Source: Colwellia sp. (GTDB taxonomy: Bacteria; Pseudomonadota; Gammaproteobacteria; Enterobacterales; Alteromonadaceae). Taken from it: a stretch of DNA of 58,375 bases. The position numbers and the translations under genes were made by a program. Location: assembly GCA_013215295.1 (NCBI GenBank), contig JABSOZ010000015.1:1-58375 (forward strand), written 5' to 3'. The notes beneath the pieces are model-generated. The model was given only the letters and a program-made list of their open reading frames with translations. It did not search any database and was not told the origin of the DNA. This document shows, one piece after another, positions 5,666 to 55,073 of the stretch. Positions within the stretch are counted from its first letter, which is position 1; each line of letters begins with the position of its first letter.

Positions 5666-6175
5666 TTAGCAGTCCTCTTTTTCTTTCCTATCGACTTGAG
5701 TCCTTTAATAACAATATGCACAGAGCTTTTCAATAATTAACAATTGTATTAATAATATACCAGCAATAGCGAAATTTGGCATGATGTAGAAATAGCTATT
5801 ACACTGGCATAAAGATGCCGTTGGCAGTTATTGTCAAATTCAAAAATCCGACGCTAGTATCCTGTGTCAATCCCATAGCTTTTTCCTAAATGTGCAAAAA
5901 TTTAATTTTAAAATTTAGAACATCATGATGAATTAACACAAATCCATTCGGAAATTGGCTAGCTCGGCTAGGTTGAACCAGATAAGTTTAATTTATGCGA
6001 GATGAAACAACTTCGCCAAGGAAGGCACCCGATTGACGATTTAAGATCGGTAAGTTGATTCTTTCATACACACTCGCAAGGTTTTTGTAAAATACTATCG
6101 TAGTCTTTAGCTATCCTCGTATGTTAATGACAATGTTCTAAAACTATAAGCTGTATAGTTAAGAAGGTAAATATA
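5666..6175. other. Intergenic region upstream of the chemoreceptor
   Basis: This ~510-base stretch has no gene. It contains regulatory motif copy A at 5947-5962, within a block of about 78 bases (5925-6002) that recurs at 7957-8036 before the acyl-CoA ligase. The rest is unassigned. Confidence 0.5.
5947..5962 (+). promoter_or_regulatory. Candidate AraC/XylS-type site A (TTCG-N6-GGCTAG)
   Basis: TTCG GAAATT GGCTAG, ~210 bases before the chemoreceptor start. The spacing TTCG-N6-GGNTA copies the half-site design of XylS-family operators (TGCA-N6-GGNTA in XylS). Three more copies occur in this module. Binding is inferred, not shown. Confidence 0.45.
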
Positions 6176-7747
6176 ATGAATAATCAAACAACGCCTGTCA
6201 TCTTTTATGCATTGGTTAGTGCAATAGTCATCGCGCTATTTCAGTATTTTGGCACTACATTTTTTAACTTTCCTTTTCAAACCGCTCTCGGCCTCGCAAT
6301 ACTAAGTTTCTTATTAACTTTTTTTATCGTGAAACAAAAGCAAGTTAGCTCTGATAAAGAGCAAGAAGAGCAACCCATTCATCAGTTTACAGAAATTGGT
6401 GAAGCAATTGGCATCAAAGCCAGTGAATTGGCAATAAACTCAGCGGAAGTGAGCTTTTTTTTAGCGCAATTAAGTAAATCAATTGATAGTTCTAGTGAAG
6501 ATGTCGATCGCCTTGCTACAGCGGCAGCGGAAATGTCAGTCAATAGTAAACAAATAAATGACAGTTCTATTATAGCCTCACAACAAGCCAGTCAAGCAAT
6601 GAGTGCTAGTACAGCGAGTTCACAACAATTAAGTGAAAATATAACTGTTGTTAATGAACTTAATGAATCAGTGAATAATGCCGCTGAAAAAATAAAATTA
6701 CTAGAACAAAAAGCAACTGAGATTCAAAGTATCACCGATGTAATAGACAGTATTTCTTCTCAAACCAATTTATTAGCATTAAATGCTGCGATTGAGGCAG
6801 CGAGAGCGGGTGAACAAGGCAGAGGTTTTGCTGTGGTCGCCGATGAAGTAAGAGCTTTAGCGGCAAAAACAGCCGATGCCACTAACCAAATTGGCGAAAT
6901 GTTGAATCAAATTAGTAATGAGACCAACGAAACTACGGTGGTAATGAGCACAATAGTGCAACAAACAGATAGTGTCGTTAAAACCATGACCGACCTATCA
7001 CAATCATTTGCTAACATTGACCAGCTAATGGCTGATTCATCTGCAGCCAGTGATCACATTAGTCAGGCATTGCAAGAGCAAGACCTAGCGGCTGCTGAAA
7101 TATCATCTTCAGTGGTCAATCTACATGACTTCCTTATTGATAAAACTAAAGAAACAGAAACAGTATCGAAACAGGCAGAAACACTTTCCAATGGTACCGA
7201 AGCCATTTTTGTTCTCCTATCTGAATTTGATGGAGATACGTTAATTAATCGAATGTGTCACCAAGCAGCGTTAGCCGCAACACAAATTGGCGAGTTTTTT
7301 GAACAAAGTATTACTCACAATAAAATTTCACTACATCAGTTATTTGACTTTAACTACATACCGCTTGGCAATACAAAACCACCAAAATTCACCACGGGTT
7401 TTGATAAGTTTACTGATCAACACTTGCCGACTATCCAAGAACCATTACTACGAAATTTTACGGAAATGATTTATGCTGCAGCAGTTGATTTTAATGGTTA
7501 TTTACCAACCCATAATAAATGTTTTTCTAAGCCCGTGACAGGAAACTATGAAATAGACATGATGCAAAGCCGCACCAAACGGATGTTTAGTGATGCCACC
7601 AGCATGCGTTGCTCTCAGCACACTGACAAATTTTTATTGCAAACTAATAGACGAGATACTGGTGAAATTATGCACGATCTTTCTGTGCCAATTTATGTGC
7701 AAGGAAAACATTGGGGTTGTTTTAGAGTTGGTTTCAAGGCTAATTAA
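6176..7747 (+). CDS. Methyl-accepting chemotaxis protein with C-terminal cytoplasmic sensor-like domain
   Basis: A 523-residue chemoreceptor. Two hydrophobic helices (about residues 8-26 and 35-50) are separated by only a few residues, so there is no periplasmic ligand domain. A methyl-accepting signalling domain follows, with the conserved hairpin tip [20 protein letters not shown] near residue 210. The last ~170 residues form a separate domain ending in [16 protein letters not shown], the style of a Cache/PAS-like module seen C-terminally in some receptors. Ligand sensing is therefore probably cytoplasmic. No clear HAMP is seen. It sits at the head of the alcohol catabolic module and shares a duplicated promoter block with the acyl-CoA ligase. 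Chemotaxis to the module's substrate or its metabolic effect is therefore a reasonable inference. Confidence 0.88.
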
Positions 7748-7956
7748 TATCATATCCGTATAAATATTTTCTCAACCTCTCGTTAAACCCAACTCCTACT
7801 GCCTAAAGATGGAGTTTTAAAAACTGTGAGCTAAAAGCCTAACACTAAGACTAAAGGCCATTACTAACTTCAACGTTGTCATCTCGTGTTCGACCCTATC
7901 GTTAAATTTCATCGTTTATCCGAAATGCGTGGTGAATTAATTGTATTACTTAAAAT

Positions 7957-8036
7957 ATGACGATTAATTAACCAGTACCCATTCGGAAATTGGATAGCTC
8001 GACCAGGCTTAACCAGATAAGTTTAATTTACGCGAG
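7957..8036. repeat. Promoter-region repeat, second copy (first copy at 5925-6002)
   Basis: The ~58-base core at 7979-8036 matches 5944-6002 with only a few differences. Both contain CCATTCGGAAATTGG, AACCAGATAAGTTTAATTTA and CGCGAG/TGCGAG. Similarity weakens upstream but continues to ~7957. Only these two copies were seen, each upstream of a gene on the same strand, so a duplicated control region is likelier than a mobile repeat. Confidence 0.7.
7982..7997 (+). promoter_or_regulatory. Candidate AraC/XylS-type site B (TTCG-N6-GGATAG)
   Basis: TTCG GAAATT GGATAG ends 69 bases before the ligase start codon, the position expected for an activator site. It is the closest match to the four-copy consensus. 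Confidence 0.5.
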
Positions 8037-8066
8037 CTAAAAGAATTAAACGATAGAGGTTTTAAG

Positions 8067-9743
8067 ATGGTTAAGTTGATGACAAGTTATGTATGCGGTG
8101 ATGCTGATGAACCGCTTATTTATGAAACAATAGGCAATTACTTTGACAATATTGTCGAACGTTTTCCAGCGAATAATGCCTTGATCATACCGTATCAAAA
8201 TATTCATTGGACTTATAAAAAATTCCAACAAGAAGTCAATCGTTTAGCGACAGGCTTGCTTAACTTAGGTATTGCTAAAGGAGATCGTGTTGGTATATGG
8301 GGGCCTAATAGTGTTGAGTGGTGTTTAACGCAATTCGCTACCGCTAAAATCGGTGCCATTATGGTATGCATCAATCCAGCATATCGGGTTTATGAATTAG
8401 AGTACGCATTAAAGAAAGTTGAATGTAAGGCTATTATTACGGCGGAAAGTTTTAAGTCTAGTCAATATTTACGTATGCTACAGGACGTTGCGCCTGAGAT
8501 GTCTTCTCAACTCGCTGAATGTTTACAATTAGCATCTTTTCCGCAATTAGAAATGATTATTCGTATGGGGAGCGATAAAACGTCAGGCATGTTAAATTTT
8601 GATGATGTTTGTAAATTAGGCTCTCAAGAAGATTATGATGAATTGGCGAAGCTCAAAAACATCTTGACGCCTGATGATGCGATTAATATTCAGTTCACCA
8701 GCGGCACCACGGGTACGCCAAAAGGGGCAACATTAACGCATTGTAATATTATCAATAACGCTTATTTATCGGCCAAAGCGATGCGGTTTGATGAAACGGA
8801 TAAGCTTTGCATTCCGGTGCCTTTATACCACTGTTTTGGCATGGTATTAGGTACTTTGCTTTGTGTAACCACAGGCTCTACCGCTGTTTTCCCTAGTGCA
8901 GCTTTTGACCCAAAGGAAACATTAAAAACCATTGAACAGCAAGGATGTACAGCTTTACATGGGGTGCCGACCATGTTTATTACTGAGCTTGAACTCCCTG
9001 ATTTCTCAAAATACAACCTGTCTAGTTTACGTACCGGTATTATGGCCGGTGCCAGTTGTCCGGAAGAAGTGATGAAACGTGTTATGCAGGATATGAATAT
9101 GAAACATATTCTCATCGGTTATGGGCAAACAGAGGTCAGCCCATTAAATCATATTACCCGGCCTGATGATTCCGTTGTTCAACGTATTGAAACTGTTGGC
9201 CGCGTCGTCCCCCGCATTGAAGTTAAAATTGCTGATAGTGAAGGTAGAGTGGTTATTGTTGGTGAAAAAGGGGAAATTTGTACCCGTGGCTATTCCGTTA
9301 TGTTGGGGTACTGGAATGATGAAGAGAAAACCAAAGAAACCATTGATGAGGCGGGGTGGTTACATTCTGGAGACATAGGGGTTATGGATGAAGATGGCTA
9401 CGTACGAGTCGTAGGGCGTACTAAAGATATGGTCATTCGGGGTGGAGAAAATATTTACCCTAGGGAAGTAGAAGAATTTTTATTTACTCATCCTAAAATT
9501 CAAGATGTGCAAGTATTTGGAATTCCTGACAATACCATGGGAGAAGCATTATGCGCTTGGATAAAAGTACAAAGTGACGAGTGTATGGAAGCTGCAGAGG
9601 TAAAGGCATTTTGTGATAACAAGGTCGCGCACTTTAAAGTGCCGCAATATATTAAGTTTGTTGAACATTATCCTATGACAGTTACTGGCAAGGTGCAAAA
9701 ATTTAAAATGAGAGAAGAAATGATTGCAAGCTTAGAAGTGTAG
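8067..9743 (+). CDS. AMP-forming acyl-CoA synthetase (fatty-acid--CoA ligase family)
   Basis: A 558-residue ANL-superfamily enzyme that activates a carboxylic acid to its CoA thioester with ATP. The P-loop FTSGTTGTPKGATLTH is at about residue 210, YGQTE at about 352, and the hinge and C-terminal signatures are GWLHSGDIGVMDEDGYVRVV then GRTKDMVIRGGENIYPREVE. The catalytic lysine lies in VTGKVQKFKMRE near the C-terminus. Length and N-terminal order match medium/short-chain and branched acyl-CoA ligases; the exact acid cannot be read from sequence. With the aldehyde dehydrogenase and PQQ-alcohol dehydrogenase downstream it fits as the activation step of alcohol use. The gene is preceded by regulatory site B. 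Confidence 0.9.
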   Translation: MVKLMTSYVCGDADEPLIYETIGNYFDNIVERFPANNALIIPYQNIHWTYKKFQQEVNRLATGLLNLGIAKGDRVGIWGPNSVEWCLTQFATAKIGAIMVCINPAYRVYELEYALKKVECKAIITAESFKSSQYLRMLQDVAPEMSSQLAECLQLASFPQLEMIIRMGSDKTSGMLNFDDVCKLGSQEDYDELAKLKNILTPDDAINIQFTSGTTGTPKGATLTHCNIINNAYLSAKAMRFDETDKLCIPVPLYHCFGMVLGTLLCVTTGSTAVFPSAAFDPKETLKTIEQQGCTALHGVPTMFITELELPDFSKYNLSSLRTGIMAGASCPEEVMKRVMQDMNMKHILIGYGQTEVSPLNHITRPDDSVVQRIETVGRVVPRIEVKIADSEGRVVIVGEKGEICTRGYSVMLGYWNDEEKTKETIDEAGWLHSGDIGVMDEDGYVRVVGRTKDMVIRGGENIYPREVEEFLFTHPKIQDVQVFGIPDNTMGEALCAWIKVQSDECMEAAEVKAFCDNKVAHFKVPQYIKFVEHYPMTVTGKVQKFKMREEMIASLEV

Positions 9744-9748
9744 ATGGT

Positions 9749-9764
9749 TTCGGAAAGCGGATAG
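9749..9764 (+). promoter_or_regulatory. Candidate AraC/XylS-type site D (TTCG-N6-GGATAG)
   Basis: TTCG GAAAGC GGATAG begins six bases after the ligase stop and ends 87 bases before the AraC start. AGATAAG follows closely, a string also present after sites A and B. The position suggests control of the regulator gene itself. Confidence 0.45.
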
Positions 9765-9851
9765 TCGAGATAAGTAATTACTGCTAATATTAAATATGGG
9801 TTACTAAAACACTAATAATTAAAGCCCACCAATTGTGAGGAAACTCTAGAT

Positions 9852-10760
9852 ATGTTGACAGAACAAGGTAATTTAGCGGTAGATATTATGTCTACCGATA
9901 TTGACGACCAGTCTGTAATGCTTGATGGTTGGGAGCAAAAGTACACTCAACTTGAAACCGGTTCGTTTGAAGCCAAAGCATTCTCTTTAGATATGTCAGA
10001 TGGCAACAATATCTTTCGAAAGAGTACCAATCGACGAATGCATAAGTGTTTTGCTATTCCTGGCAATTTAATAAGACTTGCCGCAGTATTGCCTGGTAGT
10101 GATGTGTCCGTATTTCAGGGGCGAGAAATAATAGCGGGTGACCTGTTTGTATTAAGGCCAGGTATTGAGTTGGAGTTAGCCTGCCATGGTAAGTTTGATG
10201 TTGCAGTAGTTGAATTGGATTCGAATCTTAGTTCTTCTTATATAGAAGACATAGACAACAACCATCTGGAAGGTATAGATGTTTTACCTAAGCAGGCAAC
10301 AAGTGGTTTTGCTGACAAAATAAACACGGCATTTTTACAGAAACAAATGAATGTCGATTTGTTTTCTTCCATGTGTGCACCTGCGGTTCGTGCACTTTGT
10401 TATAATGGGCCCATTGACAATAACAATAACAATAACAATAGCATTGAAGATGTTGTAACTAAAGCAATACATCTTGTTGAACATTGCCTCGATGATCTTG
10501 ATGAACTACCCAAAATACCAGAAATTGCGGCTCACTTAGGTGTTTCAGAGCGCGTACTCGAGTATGCGTTTGCTCGTAGATATGGGGTTTCACCCATCCG
10601 ATATTTTAAATTTATGCGTTTACATTGTGCGCGCCGGGACATTCGTGTTGGAAAGCTCAGTGTCACGGATATCGCAATGAAGTGGGGTTTTAGCCACCTT
10701 GGTCGTTTTTCAGGAATTTACCGCGATACTTTTGGCGAATTACCATCCCATACTAAATAA
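9852..10760 (+). CDS. AraC-family transcriptional regulator of the alcohol module
   Basis: A 302-residue regulator. An N-terminal cupin-like sensing region (about residues 45-130, with VFQGREIIAGDLFVLRPG) is followed by a linker containing seven consecutive Asn (about residues 190-196), then the C-terminal AraC DNA-binding domain. The first helix-turn-helix is IPEIAAHLGVSERVLEYAF and the second LSVTDIAMKWGFSHLGRF, ending FRDT-like YRDTFGELP. The domain order is that of AraC_binding_2-type activators such as those controlling aromatic and alcohol catabolism. It lies between the ligase and the aldehyde dehydrogenase, and TTCG-N6-GG(A/C)TAG sites flank it. It is the best candidate reader of those sites; the inducer is unknown. 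Confidence 0.87.
   Translation: MLTEQGNLAVDIMSTDIDDQSVMLDGWEQKYTQLETGSFEAKAFSLDMSDGNNIFRKSTNRRMHKCFAIPGNLIRLAAVLPGSDVSVFQGREIIAGDLFVLRPGIELELACHGKFDVAVVELDSNLSSSYIEDIDNNHLEGIDVLPKQATSGFADKINTAFLQKQMNVDLFSSMCAPAVRALCYNGPIDNNNNNNNSIEDVVTKAIHLVEHCLDDLDELPKIPEIAAHLGVSERVLEYAFARRYGVSPIRYFKFMRLHCARRDIRVGKLSVTDIAMKWGFSHLGRFSGIYRDTFGELPSHTK
10419..10439 (+). repeat. AATAAC hexanucleotide microsatellite inside the AraC gene
   Basis: Three and a half copies of AATAAC encode the poly-Asn linker. Gain or loss of whole units keeps the frame and would only change linker length. Confidence 0.8.
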
Positions 10761-11318
10761 CCTGAACTCTGGATAAGCAGCACTTGCTCAATATTCCCTT
10801 TAACTCTGAGAATCGAATCAATTGAAACATTGATAGAGTATATAGCTACTTAATCTTGTAAATTTTATTCTTAACAATTTAGGTTGATGTTTTTACTTAA
10901 ACATCAAGTACTCATTATCCTGAGTTCAGGTTAAATATGTTTTTACTTCTTTTAAACACACTTCTAGTGCAAAAAATAGTTATCTTAATGTTCTTCCCTT
11001 AAAACGGCTCTTCTGGCTTTTAACGCTATTTAATTGTTTCTGTAACGCCTGTCATACTTTTTAATTCATTATAAAACTCAACGTATAAATTTAATTTGAC
11101 ATAAAAATCAATACTATATGTGGTTGGTTGTCTGTAACCATTTCTTTAAAATATTAAGTTTAATTATATTTAATTTATTCGGGAAATGGATAGTTCGAGT
11201 TTATTAAAGTGTATAGATTGAACTTAGTCCATCTGTAAGCATGCAGATTTATTACATAGCCAATCGAAAACAATTTGTAAGAATTTAGTTTTCGTTATCT
11301 GAAATAGGAGAAGATAAA
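10761..11318. other. Intergenic region upstream of the aldehyde dehydrogenase
   Basis: About 560 AT-rich bases without a gene. A perfect 9-bp hairpin, TTGATGTTT (10884-10892)/AAACATCAA (10899-10907), may end the AraC transcript although no T-run follows. A short palindrome CCTGAGTTCAGG is at 10919-10930. Regulatory site C is at 11178-11193. Confidence 0.45.
11178..11193 (+). promoter_or_regulatory. Candidate AraC/XylS-type site C (TTCG-N6-GGATAG)
   Basis: TTCG GGAAAT GGATAG, 126 bases before the aldehyde dehydrogenase start. The flanking sequence differs from copies A and B, so the conserved core here is not explained by recent duplication. Confidence 0.45.
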
Positions 11319-12725
11319 TTGTCGAATTACAAAATGTTAATAGCAGGCAAACTTGTTGAAGGGAACACAACTTTAGATGTAATTAACCCTGCCAATGAAG
11401 AAGTTTTCGCAACTGTACCTAGAGCAAATCAAGAAAATGTGATGACTGCGATCGCGGCAGCAAAAAGTGCACAACAATTATGGAAGAATGTCGCAGAATC
11501 AGAGCGAAGAGTTGTTGTGAATAAAATCGCAGATGCTATAGCTGAAAATGCTGAAGAACTTGCCAAGGTTATAACTTTAGAGCAAGGCAAAGTATTAGAC
11601 TTTGCTCGCATGGAAGTTCAATTTGCTGAAGCTTTTTGTCGTTCATTAGCGTCACATGAGTTTCCCGTTACCGTGTTAGAAGAAACTGAAACTAATCGAG
11701 TTGAAGAACATCGAAATCCGCTTGGCGTTGTTGCTGCGATTATTCCTTGGAATTTTCCATTATTGATTGCGGTATATAAGTTATCTCCTGCGTTGGTAAC
11801 GGGTAATGCCATCATTTTAAAGCCTGCGCCAACCACGCCTGTTTCATCACTTTTGTTGGGACAGATTATTGCTGACATCGTGCCAAAAGGTTTAGTCAGT
11901 ATTATTGTTGATAATAATGATTTAGGTCCGGTGCTAACGTCTCATCCAGATATTGCAAAAATTTCGTTTACCGGCTCCACACCTACCGGTAAAGCTATTA
12001 TGAAGAATGCGGCTGATACTATGAAGCGCTTAACGCTTGAGCTTGGTGGTAATGATGCAGCAATCGTGCTTGATGATGCCGATGCAAAAACAATTGCACC
12101 GGGTATATTTTTTAGTGCATTTATCAATAGTGGTCAAGTCTGTATAGCCCTTAAACGGTTATACGTTCATGAGTCAGTATATGACGAACTATGTGATGAA
12201 ATAGCAACCTTAGCAAAAGGTGCTGTTGTTGGTAATGGCATGGAAGAAGGGGTTCAATTTGGACCTGTTCAGAATAAGGTTCAATACGAAAAAGTATTAT
12301 CTTATATCGCCGAAGGTAAAGCTCAAGGTACCGTGATAGCCGGCGGGGACGCACCACATCAGCCTGGTTATGTTATTCCTTTAACGGTTATTAAAGATTT
12401 GAAAGATGGTTGTAGCTTAGTTGATGAAGAACCCTTTGGTCCTGTACTTCCAATTATTAAATATTCTGATTTAGACGAAGTATTAGCCAATGCAAATAAC
12501 AGCAAAATGGGCTTAGGTGGTTCTGTTTGGTCATCTAACCTTGATAGAGCTTTAAAAGTGGCTGCTCAGTTAGAAACAGGCACAGTGTGGATCAATCAAC
12601 ATTGTGCTTTTGGACCGCAAATACATATGGCACCAGCTAAAGAATCTGGTATAGGTGCTGAATGGGGCAAGGAAGGGGTTAAAGAATTTACTGCTTGTAA
12701 AATCATTAACATTAATAAGGCGTAG
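11319..12725 (+). CDS. NAD(P)-dependent aldehyde dehydrogenase
   Basis: A 468-residue ALDH-superfamily enzyme oxidising an aldehyde to the acid. Visible marks are PWNFPLL (cofactor/Rossmann region), SFTGSTPTGK, the general base in LELGGND (Glu241) and the catalytic Cys in NSGQVCIALKR (Cys275), followed by EEPFGPVLP. The start is TTG at 11319, chosen because AGGAG lies 8 bases upstream and no ATG precedes the conserved N-terminus. It is a cytoplasmic enzyme by lack of a signal peptide, so it would receive aldehyde made in the periplasm by the PQQ-dehydrogenase. Site C in its promoter suggests co-regulation with the ligase. The aldehyde substrate cannot be told from sequence. Confidence 0.92.
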   Translation: MSNYKMLIAGKLVEGNTTLDVINPANEEVFATVPRANQENVMTAIAAAKSAQQLWKNVAESERRVVVNKIADAIAENAEELAKVITLEQGKVLDFARMEVQFAEAFCRSLASHEFPVTVLEETETNRVEEHRNPLGVVAAIIPWNFPLLIAVYKLSPALVTGNAIILKPAPTTPVSSLLLGQIIADIVPKGLVSIIVDNNDLGPVLTSHPDIAKISFTGSTPTGKAIMKNAADTMKRLTLELGGNDAAIVLDDADAKTIAPGIFFSAFINSGQVCIALKRLYVHESVYDELCDEIATLAKGAVVGNGMEEGVQFGPVQNKVQYEKVLSYIAEGKAQGTVIAGGDAPHQPGYVIPLTVIKDLKDGCSLVDEEPFGPVLPIIKYSDLDEVLANANNSKMGLGGSVWSSNLDRALKVAAQLETGTVWINQHCAFGPQIHMAPAKESGIGAEWGKEGVKEFTACKIININKA

Positions 12726-13752: not shown

Positions 13753-13780
13753 CCTTCTGAGATAGAAGGCATTTTATTTT
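13753..13780 (+). terminator. Weak hairpin terminator/attenuator after the porin gene
   Basis: CCTTCT (13753-13758)/AGAAGG (13764-13769) with a 5-base loop is followed by a T-rich tract (ATTTTATTTT). It could partly end transcription before the PQQ-dehydrogenase or act as a processing hairpin. Confidence 0.45.
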
Positions 13781-15998: not shown

Positions 15999-16070
15999 AT
16001 GTGGACTAAACCAAATTATGAAGAGATACGTTTAGGTTTTGAAGTAACACTTTATATCAGCCATCGTTAA
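15999..16070 (+). CDS. pqqA: PQQ precursor peptide PqqA, first copy
   Basis: A 23-residue peptide, MWTKPNYEEIRLGFEVTLY then ISHR. It carries the Glu-x3-Tyr pair (E15 and Y19) that PqqE crosslinks to start pyrroloquinoline quinone synthesis. The ribosome site AGGAGG lies seven bases before the ATG. It is 92 bases after the alcohol dehydrogenase stop. The length is the family norm, and the conserved tryptophan-lysine start and the EVTLY core leave no doubt. A second nearly identical copy follows. An inverted repeat ATCAGCC/GGCTGAT (16056-16062/16077-16083) overlaps the end of this gene. Confidence 0.93.
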   Translation: MWTKPNYEEIRLGFEVTLYISHR

Positions 16071-16135: not shown

Positions 16136-16207
16136 ATGTGGACTAAACCAAACTTTGAAGAAATACGATTAGGTTTTGAAGTAACACTCTATATCAGTAA
16201 CCGTTAG
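16136..16207 (+). CDS. pqqA: PQQ precursor peptide PqqA, second copy
   Basis: A 23-residue peptide differing from the first copy at only two residues (Phe for Tyr7, Asn for His22). The ribosome site GAGGAG precedes the ATG. Both the crosslinked Glu and Tyr are kept, so it should be a working substrate for PqqE. Tyr7 of copy one is replaced by Phe, which leaves a single tyrosine and therefore no ambiguity in the crosslink. The tandem copies probably raise precursor dosage, since each PQQ consumes one peptide. A strong hairpin follows before pqqB. Confidence 0.93.
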   Translation: MWTKPNFEEIRLGFEVTLYISNR

Positions 16208-22911: not shown

Positions 22912-23991
22912 TTGCAACTATTAGAAATAGAGTGTTTAGGAAAAACCCTACGGTTAGAAGGTTCAATGGCGGGGTGGCAACAACTATTTTGGGATGAACA
23001 GTGTGTTTCACAAATTAATGCTAGTTCTGACAATGAATCGTTTTCACATCAATTCGCTCTACAAACTGAGCAAGGAGAATTGCGAGTTGCGCTCAATGGC
23101 TCTTTAAAATGGCAGCCTTTTGAACTGCGATTTCAGCTTTCAATCAATGAAGAAATTTTGCATGAGAATACGCTGAATGAAAAAGATATTGAGCAACGTC
23201 AGTCAACTCAAGATCATAAGCAACCGATAAAATTTAGTTTAATTGGCATGGCGGGCCTTGGCTTAAAATTATTGAAAAGCGCTAAAGTCATTAAAGTTTT
23301 GTTTGCTGCGGGCAGTTTAGCGGCCTATAGCTGGTTATTTTCTATTGAGTTTGCAATCGCACTAATTCTTTGTTTAGTTTTTCATGAGTATGGTCATATT
23401 AAAGCAATGAAGTATTTTGGCCTTAAAACCAAAGGCATATATCTCATTCCATTTGTTGGGGGCTTAGCACTTAGCGATGACAAAATTAATACTCGATGGC
23501 AAGACATTGTGATTTCAATAATGGGACCATTTTTTGGTTTAATATTATCTGTCACTTGTTTAATCGGGTATTGGATCACCGATTTAGAAATACTGGCTGG
23601 CTTAGCCGTATTCAATGCGCTACTCAATTTATTTAATATGCTACCTGTCTTGCCATTAGACGGTGGGCATATTCTCAAAAGTATCGCTTTTTCTATTAAC
23701 TCTAAAGTAGGATTAATTGTTTGTATATTAGGGGCCGCTTTAGGTGTTTATATCAGTTATCACTTTGGTTTAGCACTTCTAGGTTTTTTACTTGCTATTG
23801 GGAGTATTGAAATATTCTTTGAATATAAGCGTCGTCATTTAAGTGATCTATTACCGCTTAATCGTTATGCTCAAATTGTTTCAATCTTATGGTATATCAT
23901 TACATTAAGTGGATTAAGCGCGATTATTTGGTTCGTAGGGCAAACCGGAAATGGAGCTTTGTCATTACCCCTTAAAATATTGGGTAGTTAA
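22912..23991 (+). CDS. Site-2-protease-like M50 membrane metalloprotease
   Basis: A 359-residue membrane protein. The zinc motif HEYGH is at residues 158-162 within a hydrophobic helix (LCLVFHEYGHIKAMKYFG), and the third ligand motif LPLDGGH (Asp250) lies in a later helix, as in intramembrane M50 peptidases. About six hydrophobic helices occupy residues 110-345. The first ~95 residues form a soluble, beta-rich domain (LEIECLGKTLRLEGSMAGWQ) of unknown role. The start is TTG at 22912; the first ATG (residue 20) would cut into this domain. It stands alone, so a substrate cannot be guessed from neighbours. Confidence 0.8.
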   Translation: MQLLEIECLGKTLRLEGSMAGWQQLFWDEQCVSQINASSDNESFSHQFALQTEQGELRVALNGSLKWQPFELRFQLSINEEILHENTLNEKDIEQRQSTQDHKQPIKFSLIGMAGLGLKLLKSAKVIKVLFAAGSLAAYSWLFSIEFAIALILCLVFHEYGHIKAMKYFGLKTKGIYLIPFVGGLALSDDKINTRWQDIVISIMGPFFGLILSVTCLIGYWITDLEILAGLAVFNALLNLFNMLPVLPLDGGHILKSIAFSINSKVGLIVCILGAALGVYISYHFGLALLGFLLAIGSIEIFFEYKRRHLSDLLPLNRYAQIVSILWYIITLSGLSAIIWFVGQTGNGALSLPLKILGS

Positions 23992-54779: not shown

Positions 54780-55073
54780 ATGCCACATTGTAGAGAGTTT
54801 GCCGTATTTTCTGTAATCAAAGAAAATCAAAAAAGAGTGATTGAATTAAGTGAGTTATTATTTGAAGAGATGAATAATGACAGGGAAGTGCTTATATCAC
54901 AGAGTATTTTACGGAAAACGGATAATGCTGAAGAGATTTGTTGGCAGCTTGTTTGGTTAAATGAAGAAGTCGTAGAAGAAAATAATAAAAATTGGTCCAA
55001 TTTTCCCAGTAGTGCCGAGCTCGAATCTTTAGTCGGTGAAAGACTCTATTATGGGCATTTCTTAGTAATCTAG
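54780..55073 (+). CDS. Small ABM-like (dimeric alpha-beta barrel) protein
   Basis: A 97-residue cytoplasmic protein. The pattern FAVFSVIKENQKRVIELSEL, then EVLISQSILRKTDNAEEICW and the strand-helix alternation resemble antibiotic-biosynthesis monooxygenase-type ferredoxin folds. No catalytic residues can be assigned. It lies between elyC and an Old Yellow Enzyme, each on the opposite strand, so context is not informative. Function unknown. Confidence 0.6.
   Translation: MPHCREFAVFSVIKENQKRVIELSELLFEEMNNDREVLISQSILRKTDNAEEICWQLVWLNEEVVEENNKNWSNFPSSAELESLVGERLYYGHFLVI

What the first reader, a model, noticed from the sequence alone, without database searches (positions are those of the whole stretch)
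5947..11193. Four TTCG-N6-GG(A/C)TAG sites mark a possible chemotaxis-catabolism regulon
The same 16-base design occurs at 5947, 7982, 9749 and 11178, always on the plus strand and upstream of a module gene (chemoreceptor, acyl-CoA ligase, AraC regulator, aldehyde dehydrogenase). The layout copies XylS/AraC-family half-sites (TGCA-N6-GGNTA). Copies C and D have unrelated flanks, so conservation of the core is not only due to duplication. The AraC protein encoded at 9852 is the natural reader. No copy was seen before the porin, PQQ-dehydrogenase or pqq genes, which implies a second control layer there.
Basis: partly seen in the sequence, partly recalled or inferred. Interest (0 to 1): 0.75.

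Follow-up and report, generated by a model that had tools for sequence, protein, structure and literature searches.

The report
XylS-type activator sites in alcohol cassette
Four matching DNA words in front of alcohol-oxidation and chemoreceptor genes look like docking sites for the gene switch encoded among them, placed at the same distance from the start signal as in the well-studied XylS switch; a good, testable but not revolutionary regulon.

Summary
The four sites are real (0.09 expected per shuffled window). The bare core is at background elsewhere in the genome (6 further hits; reversed control 9). The fuller word TTCGGRAANNGGMTAG occurs four times in 5.77 Mb, all in this cassette. The only other sampled family genome with an AraC orthologue (76%, another genus) also has exactly four, in the same cassette. 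Of 395 family genomes, 376 have none and 17 have one; none of those 17 has TANNNT at the cassette spacing.

In 7 of 8 cassette sites TANNNT starts 21 nt after GGMTA (22 in the eighth), as in the XylS-activated Pm promoter. The regulator's second helix-turn-helix is XylS-like; the first differs, as does box A (TTCG for TGCA).

Best reading: single-half-site, XylS-type operators of the 9852 activator, driving the acyl-CoA ligase, its own gene, and an ALDH-porin-quinoprotein dehydrogenase operon. Chemoreceptor membership is weaker: its site is a copy of the ligase promoter, absent before the gene's relatives. A 'second control layer' for porin and dehydrogenase is not supported; for pqq it is open. 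One reader claim fails in part: the upstream flank of D resembles that of B. Binding is untested.

The parts
5947..5962 (+). Site A, TTCGGAAATTGGCTAG, upstream of the chemoreceptor gene
   Evidence: copy of the site B segment
5983..5988 (+). -10-like TAAGTT, 21 nt after GGCTA of site A
6176..7747 (+). Methyl-accepting chemotaxis protein (523 aa)
   Evidence: PF00015; relatives 80-81% in G347 and G394 lack the site
7909..7924 (-). Possible decayed counterpart of the G347 site E' (TTCGGATAAACGATGA, 11 of 16 identical), facing away from site B
   Evidence: weak, chosen by eye from the alignment
7982..7997 (+). Site B, TTCGGAAATTGGATAG, upstream of the acyl-CoA ligase gene; 16/16 conserved in G347 (B')
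8018..8023 (+). -10-like TAAGTT, 21 nt after GGATA of site B
8067..9743 (+). Acyl-CoA ligase, fatty acid CoA ligase family protein
   Evidence: PF00501; NF009233 833.7 bits against cut-off 832
9749..9764 (+). Site C, TTCGGAAAGCGGATAG, upstream of the AraC gene (autoregulation expected); 16/16 conserved in G347 (C')
9785..9790 (+). -10-like TAATAT, 21 nt after GGATA of site C
9852..10760 (+). AraC-family regulator, the proposed reader of the sites
   Evidence: PF12833 and PF00165; second HTH close to XylS
11178..11193 (+). Site D, TTCGGGAAATGGATAG, upstream of ALDH-porin-quinoprotein dehydrogenase; 15/16 conserved in G347 (D')
11214..11219 (+). -10-like TAGATT, 21 nt after GGATA of site D
11319..12725 (+). 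Aldehyde dehydrogenase, 90% identical in G347
   Evidence: PF00171
12806..13738 (+). Outer-membrane channel of the Phenol_MetA_deg family, 74% identical in G347
   Evidence: PF13557
13816..15906 (+). PQQ-dependent alcohol dehydrogenase with C-terminal cytochrome c domain, 94% identical in G347
   Evidence: TIGR03075 672.4 bits against cut-off 480; PF13442

Best explanation
Each 16-mer is a single XylS-type half-site, box A TTCG and box B GG(A/C)TA(G) separated by an A-rich hexamer. The AraC-family activator encoded at 9852 binds it. In this model the first HTH reads TTCG and the XylS-like second HTH reads GGMTA. Box B ends where it would overlap the -35 hexamer by two bases, so bound activator would contact RNA polymerase (class II activation) and make up for a poor -35 element. 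It would thereby switch on the acyl-CoA ligase, its own gene, an ALDH-porin-quinohaemoprotein alcohol dehydrogenase operon and, more doubtfully, a chemoreceptor, when an alcohol or a breakdown product is present. Shown here: the sites, their conservation, their genome-wide exclusivity, the fixed -10 spacing, and the co-occurrence with the regulator. Inferred: binding, which HTH reads which box, activation rather than repression, the inducer, and the operon structure.
For: 1) Exclusivity: TTCGGRAANNGGMTAG occurs 4 times in G000 and 4 times in G347, all in the cassette. Of 395 family genomes, 376 have none and 17 have one. G000 and G347 are also the only two with an AraC match better than E 1e-23 (2.3e-206 and 6.3e-146, which scored the five best candidates per genome). 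2) The 17 background hits lie in open frames of 89-609 codons (16 of them at least 247), with TANNNT at offset 21 in 0 of 17 and at 19-23 in 0 of 17. The cassette sites lie in frames of 30-53 codons, with TANNNT at 21 in 7 of 8. 3) The same 21 nt in Pm of pWW0 (TGCA-AAAAAT-GGCTA-21-TAGGCT). Three random intergenic points share some TANNNT offset of 10-31 in 0.085% of draws, and offset 21 in 0.003%; if D and B are kin only two lineages count, and the chance is about 0.034 squared, 0.1%, for offset 21. 4) Site conservation between genera: C 16/16, B 16/16, D 15/16, against 3/8, 52/78 and 158/234 for aligned upstream flanks. 5) Second HTH GFSHLGRF..YR.TFGELPS against XylS GFLHLGRF..YR.AFGELPS; the first HTH differs. 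7) Print: XylS binds TGCA-N6-GGNTA and its second site overlaps the -35 box by two bases, which is essential (PMC4225500, passages; boxes A and B also in PMC5481539, passages). The generic sigma-70 scan lists none of the four promoters, as expected if the -35 is weak.
Against: No binding or expression data. Only one orthologous locus was found, so three of its four sites are homologues rather than independent events. A and B are one lineage, and D shares an AT-rich upstream flank with B (20/32), so truly unrelated lineages may be as few as B, C and perhaps E'; a gapped comparison also pairs E' with B (66 bp, 73%) and D with E' (51 bp, 76%). The refined word was derived from the sites it then counts. 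No recognisable distal half-site exists at offsets of 10-60 nt (best score -3.5, sites 25-27), whereas XylS needs two. The N-terminal part matches no Pfam sensor domain at E up to 5. Loci around 15 distant homologues (23-45% identity, the highest over the HTH part only) gave no consistent GGNTA promoter set. Flanks downstream of D are also well conserved (110/125), so the footprint there is not confined to the site. A terminator-like hairpin at 13753-13769 lies between porin and dehydrogenase.
Confidence: 0.8

Rival explanations
1. The sites are real operators but for another regulator (another AraC protein or a different family), and the 9852 gene is only a passenger or co-target.
For: Binding is untested. 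G000 has four further AraC-like matches besides 9852. Single half-sites without a distal partner are unusual for XylS-type dimers.
Against: More than one site appears only in the two genomes that carry the 9852 orthologue. The other four matches in G000 cover only part of the C-terminal HTH region (at best E 1.1e-9, 35% over 81 residues). The second HTH resembles XylS, whose box B is the same GGNTA.
Confidence: 0.1
2. The similarity is mostly inherited by duplication of a promoter segment and by shared ancestry of the cassette, not held by regulator binding; the core is a by-product.
For: A and B share 109 bp at 79%. The upstream flank of D matches that of B in 20 of 32 positions, and E' pairs with B and D in a gapped comparison. 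B, C and D are orthologous to B', C' and D'.
Against: C has flanks unrelated to B and D (8/32 and 10/32 upstream, 4/20 and 4/20 downstream, all at chance), yet shares the word and the -10 spacing. Downstream flanks of B and D are not significantly alike (8/20), yet the spacing to TANNNT is the same. Conservation in the site exceeds that of aligned upstream flanks.
Confidence: 0.07
3. The word is part of a variant promoter element (an unusual -35 or sigma-factor site) rather than an activator operator.
For: It lies at a fixed distance from a -10-like hexamer in 7 of 8 cases.
Against: Exactly four copies in each of two genomes, all in the cassette, and 0 in the 5 same-genus genomes lacking the regulator, is not what a general sigma factor would give. 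It spans 16 bp upstream of and into the -35 region and mirrors a known activator half-site.
Confidence: 0.03

Closest known systems
[quoted passage not shown]
   Same: Box A-N6-box B layout, similar A-rich hexamer (Pm AGAAGC and AAAAAT; here GAAAGC, GAAATT, GGAAAT), box B GG(A/C)TA, TANNNT exactly 21 nt on, XylS-like second HTH.
   Different: Box A is TTCG, not TGCA. One recognisable half-site per promoter, not two. First HTH diverged. No AraC_binding_2 match in the N-terminal part. Target is an alcohol cassette, not meta-cleavage genes.
BenR of Pseudomonas and two Rhodocyclales
   Same: Repeated TGCA-N6-GGNTA sites before catabolic operons (PMC6449761, passages).
   Different: Different box A and substrate.
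AndR / AntR-type anthranilate regulators
   Same: Best NCBIfam match of the 9852 protein is AndR, over the DNA-binding part.
   Different: 71.9 bits against a cut-off of 350. The authors of a P. fluorescens study could not find a XylS-type site upstream of the ant core promoter (PMC1360089, passages).
ped / exa quinoprotein alcohol dehydrogenase regulons of Pseudomonas
   Same: Also control PQQ-dependent alcohol dehydrogenases.
   Different: Controlled by LuxR-type regulators AgmR/PedR1 and PedR2; the term AraC does not occur in the paper's main text (PMC12997753, passages).

Membership tests
XylS-type class II activator system | C-terminal double-HTH AraC domain | tested here: met
   PF12833 3.8e-20 and PF00165 4.5e-10; alignment with XylS
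XylS-type class II activator system | Box A-N6-GGNTA half-site overlapping the -35 by two bases, with -10 at the Pm distance | tested here: met
   7 of 8 sites at 21 nt, eighth at 22; Pm 21. A 17-bp spacer would put the -35 over the last two bases of GGMTA (arithmetic; the overlap at Pm is in print, PMC4225500)
XylS-type class II activator system | Box A = TGCA | tested here: not met
   TTCG in 8 of 8 sites; the search pattern itself required TTCG
XylS-type class II activator system | Two tandem half-sites | tested here: not met
   No second site scoring above 0 at offsets 10-60 upstream in 8 of 8
XylS-type class II activator system | AraC_binding_2 N-terminal effector and dimerisation domain as in XylS | tested here: not met
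   No Pfam match outside the HTH region at E up to 5 (the filters drop most weak matches); XylS itself matches PF14525 at 9.4e-23
XylS-type class II activator system | Effector-dependent DNA binding and activation | not testable with these tools
   needs gel shift and reporter assays
AndR anthranilate regulator (NF041686) | Score above the curated cut-off | tested here: not met
   71.9 bits against 350

The most novel reading that the evidence does not exclude
A XylS-type regulator that has re-tuned only its first HTH (TTCG instead of TGCA), kept the GGNTA-reading second HTH and the exact promoter geometry, and works from single half-sites. Its regulon then grew by promoter-segment duplication: about 110 bp carrying the ligase promoter was copied in front of a pre-existing chemoreceptor gene, coupling taxis towards the substrate to its catabolism. 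Box A would then be a modular specificity element that can be predicted from HTH1.
Probability: 0.35. Interest if true: 0.6.

Novelty: new member of a known kind. Interest (0 to 1): 0.45.

Why it matters
It gives a compact, testable regulon for an alcohol-oxidation cassette whose regulator has no close relative in the genomes searched here beyond one other. It offers a natural comparison with XylS in which one DNA box and one HTH changed while the other box, the other HTH and the promoter spacing stayed. It also suggests a route by which chemotaxis can be wired to catabolism: copying a promoter.

Tried and rejected
Core-only genome scan: 10 hits against 9 control, so the 16-mer with free N6 is no evidence by itself outside the cassette; the fuller word was needed. 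Look-alikes in G000: L006, L007, L008, L156 and L157 lie in open frames of 273-1005 codons; L005 is non-coding with TANNNT at 22 but faces no frame of 70 codons or more. Weaker matrix hits in the window (best 16.2 against 25-27 for the four sites, at 54910) have no -10 at the spacing, apart from one low-scoring hit with TANNNT at 20 (43080, score 7.2); the 'intergenic' labels of that script are unreliable beyond 23991, because its gene list stopped there. Distal half-sites: none by the matrix.

Distant AraC homologues (15 loci, L113-L127): no consistent GGNTA-21-TANNNT set. One such site in a Bordetella locus, L041 (TTCG-CTTTTC-GGATA-21-TATTTT), is a single hit from a loose pattern and was not pursued. 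More interesting: in three genomes of genus g10 (L078, L079, L081; the latter two identical in the dehydrogenase upstream stretch aligned) a 48-51% identical dehydrogenase is preceded, in the intergenic region shared with a divergent LGRF-type AraC gene, by two GGATAG copies 20 nt apart, the proximal one followed by TACTGT at 21 nt. This supports the architecture but has another box A. Of the other 11 dehydrogenase loci (420 bp upstream scanned), nine had no GGNTA-TANNNT site and two, L076 and L077, a loose one.

The idea that the site belongs to the chemoreceptor lineage was rejected: MCP relatives in G347 (a genome that has the regulator) and G394 lack it. Structure prediction was not run: the allowed alignment would have been three sequences deep.

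Literature, listings only unless a passage is cited: 888 papers, 25 listed; 3; 131, 12 listed; 154, 12 listed; 1; 24, 10 listed; 6. None of the listings seen names this motif, or an AraC regulator of a quinoprotein alcohol dehydrogenase with such sites; the motif itself cannot be searched as a phrase. Passages were read in seven papers. Of these, GliR of P. aeruginosa, an AraC-type activator with a motif GGAYAWCGCCG, needs more than one site for full activation (PMC8151288, passages), which speaks against single-site action as a rule; GGATAG in PMC11784139 is only in a primer.

Full report
Observation. The four sites are exactly as described. Shuffled windows give 0.09 matches on average and never more than one. 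Site-to-start distances are 213, 69, 87 and 125 nt. Gene families: MCP signalling domain, AMP-binding ligase, AraC HTH, aldehyde dehydrogenase, Phenol_MetA_deg channel, PQQ dehydrogenase with cytochrome c domain, then PqqB, PqqC and PqqE.

Genome-wide test. Of the 6 outside hits, 5 are in open frames of 273-1005 codons and the sixth faces no frame of 70 codons or more. With the spacer bases that the sites share, TTCGGRAANNGGMTAG gives four hits, all in the cassette, and no control hit.

A second genome. Of 395 family genomes, one in another genus (G347) carries a 94%-identical dehydrogenase with ALDH (90%), channel (74%) and AraC (76%) beside it. Conservation of B, C and D is 16/16, 16/16 and 15/16, against 52/78, 3/8 and 158/234 in aligned upstream flanks; downstream flanks are also well kept (39/46, 53/67 and 110/125).

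Co-occurrence. In the family search the only strong AraC matches are the window itself and G347; the next is 30% identical at E 2.4e-23 (the five best candidates per genome were scored). No match at E 1e-12 exists in the 5 same-genus genomes. In the class search of 369 genomes the best of the others is 29% identical. In the pattern search, 376 of 395 genomes have no site, 17 have one, and G000 and G347 have four each. By my hand count of that table, the reversed control has 29 hits in 26 genomes, never more than two in one. The 17 single hits lie in open frames of 89-609 codons, 16 of them at least 247, and none has TANNNT at any offset of 19-23. The word was refined from the sites themselves, so the four-per-genome counts are partly circular; the absence elsewhere and the -10 test are not.

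Promoter geometry. Counting from the last base of GGMTA, TANNNT begins at offset 21 in 7 of 8 sites and at 22 in E'. The proximal XylS site of Pm on pWW0, read from the record, has the same 21 nt. Three random intergenic points share some offset of 10-31 in 0.00085 of draws, and offset 21 in 0.00003. If B and D are kin, only two lineages (B and C) count; with TANNNT at 0.034 of intergenic positions the chance for offset 21 is about 0.001, and for any of the 22 offsets about 0.025 (my arithmetic). With a usual 17-bp spacer the -35 hexamer would include the last two bases of GGMTA. The literature reports just this two-base overlap for Pm and calls it essential (PMC4225500, passages). The four promoters do not appear in a generic sigma-70 scan, which itself found no excess (27 against 31.3 in shuffles).

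Flanks. A and B share 109 bp at 79%. C is at chance against B, D and E' upstream (8, 10 and 7 of 32). D matches B in 20 of the 32 bases upstream, reached by 0.04% of intergenic stretches, but not downstream (8/20). E' is at chance in the ungapped test (13/32 with B, 11/32 with D), though gapped alignments pair it with B (E 9e-7) and D (E 4e-5), site included.

The reader protein. Against XylS the second HTH is GFSHLGRFSGIYRDTFGELPS versus GFLHLGRFAENYRSAFGELPS; the first HTH and the N-terminal part differ (28% overall). Box B is shared with XylS and box A is not. That HTH1 reads box A and HTH2 box B is recalled from work on the AraC family and is inference here. PMC5481539 (passages) states only that two recognition helices contact direct repeats made of box A TGCA and a box B. 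No distal half-site was found, so either one monomer suffices or the second contacts DNA loosely.

Operons. ALDH, channel and dehydrogenase are on one strand with 80- and 77-bp gaps in the window and the same order in both genera, and no TTCG-type site lies between them. They are most simply one operon under site D. A terminator-like hairpin at 13753-13769 is the main caution. The pqqB gene starts 437 bp after the dehydrogenase, behind two tandem pqqA-like frames, and may have its own promoter.

Chemoreceptor. The MCP has 80-81% relatives in G347 and G394 at other loci; neither has the site, but both share with the window a conserved block about 45-90 bp before the start codon. So site A looks like a copied ligase promoter placed before a chemoreceptor that may already have had its own promoter. 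It may add control or be idle.

Verdict. A new regulon of a known kind: a XylS-like activator with a changed box A and single half-sites, confidence 0.80 for the operator and reader reading, lower (about 0.6, judgement) for the chemoreceptor.

Noticed in passing
window 15999-16070 and 16136-16207 (+): Two tandem 23-codon frames MWTKPNYEEIRLGFEVTLYISHR and MWTKPNFEEIRLGFEVTLYISNR look like duplicated pqqA precursor genes ahead of pqqB (the name is recalled, coordinates counted by hand from that output).
   Followed up: no
window 7950-7981 and 11146-11177: The 32 bp upstream of sites B and D are alike in 20 of 32 positions (TTAAAATAT, then TTAATTA): kinship of the promoters or a shared AT-rich element.
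   Followed up: partly
L075 7160-7400, 8612-8746 and 8760-9060: In G347 the acyl-CoA ligase is broken: its C-terminal remnant lies beside site C', its N-terminal remnant beside site B' in opposite orientation, with sequence that by eye resembles the IS transposase at L075 2-616 next to it.
   Followed up: partly
L075 7960-8250 (-): Site E' of G347 faces a 96-codon frame of unknown kind; the matching place in the window (7909-7924) has only 11 of 16 bases.
   Followed up: partly
L078 11500-11570; L079 and L081 in the corresponding place: Two GGATAG copies 20 nt apart, the proximal followed by TACTGT at 21 nt, lie between a divergent LGRF-type AraC gene and a related quinoprotein dehydrogenase in genus g10: a probable sister regulon with another box A.
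   Followed up: partly
L084 224-3990: G394 has pqqB, pqqC and pqqE 76-81% identical to the window's, behind a dehydrogenase only about 49% identical, without a match to this AraC gene in the fetched stretch or its sites in the genome: the pqq and dehydrogenase parts seem to have separate histories.
   Followed up: no
window 22912-23991: M50-family metalloprotease (PF02163), with a below-cut-off match to the YydH/LiaK epipeptide maturation protease (33.3 bits against 225), just after the pqq genes.
   Followed up: no
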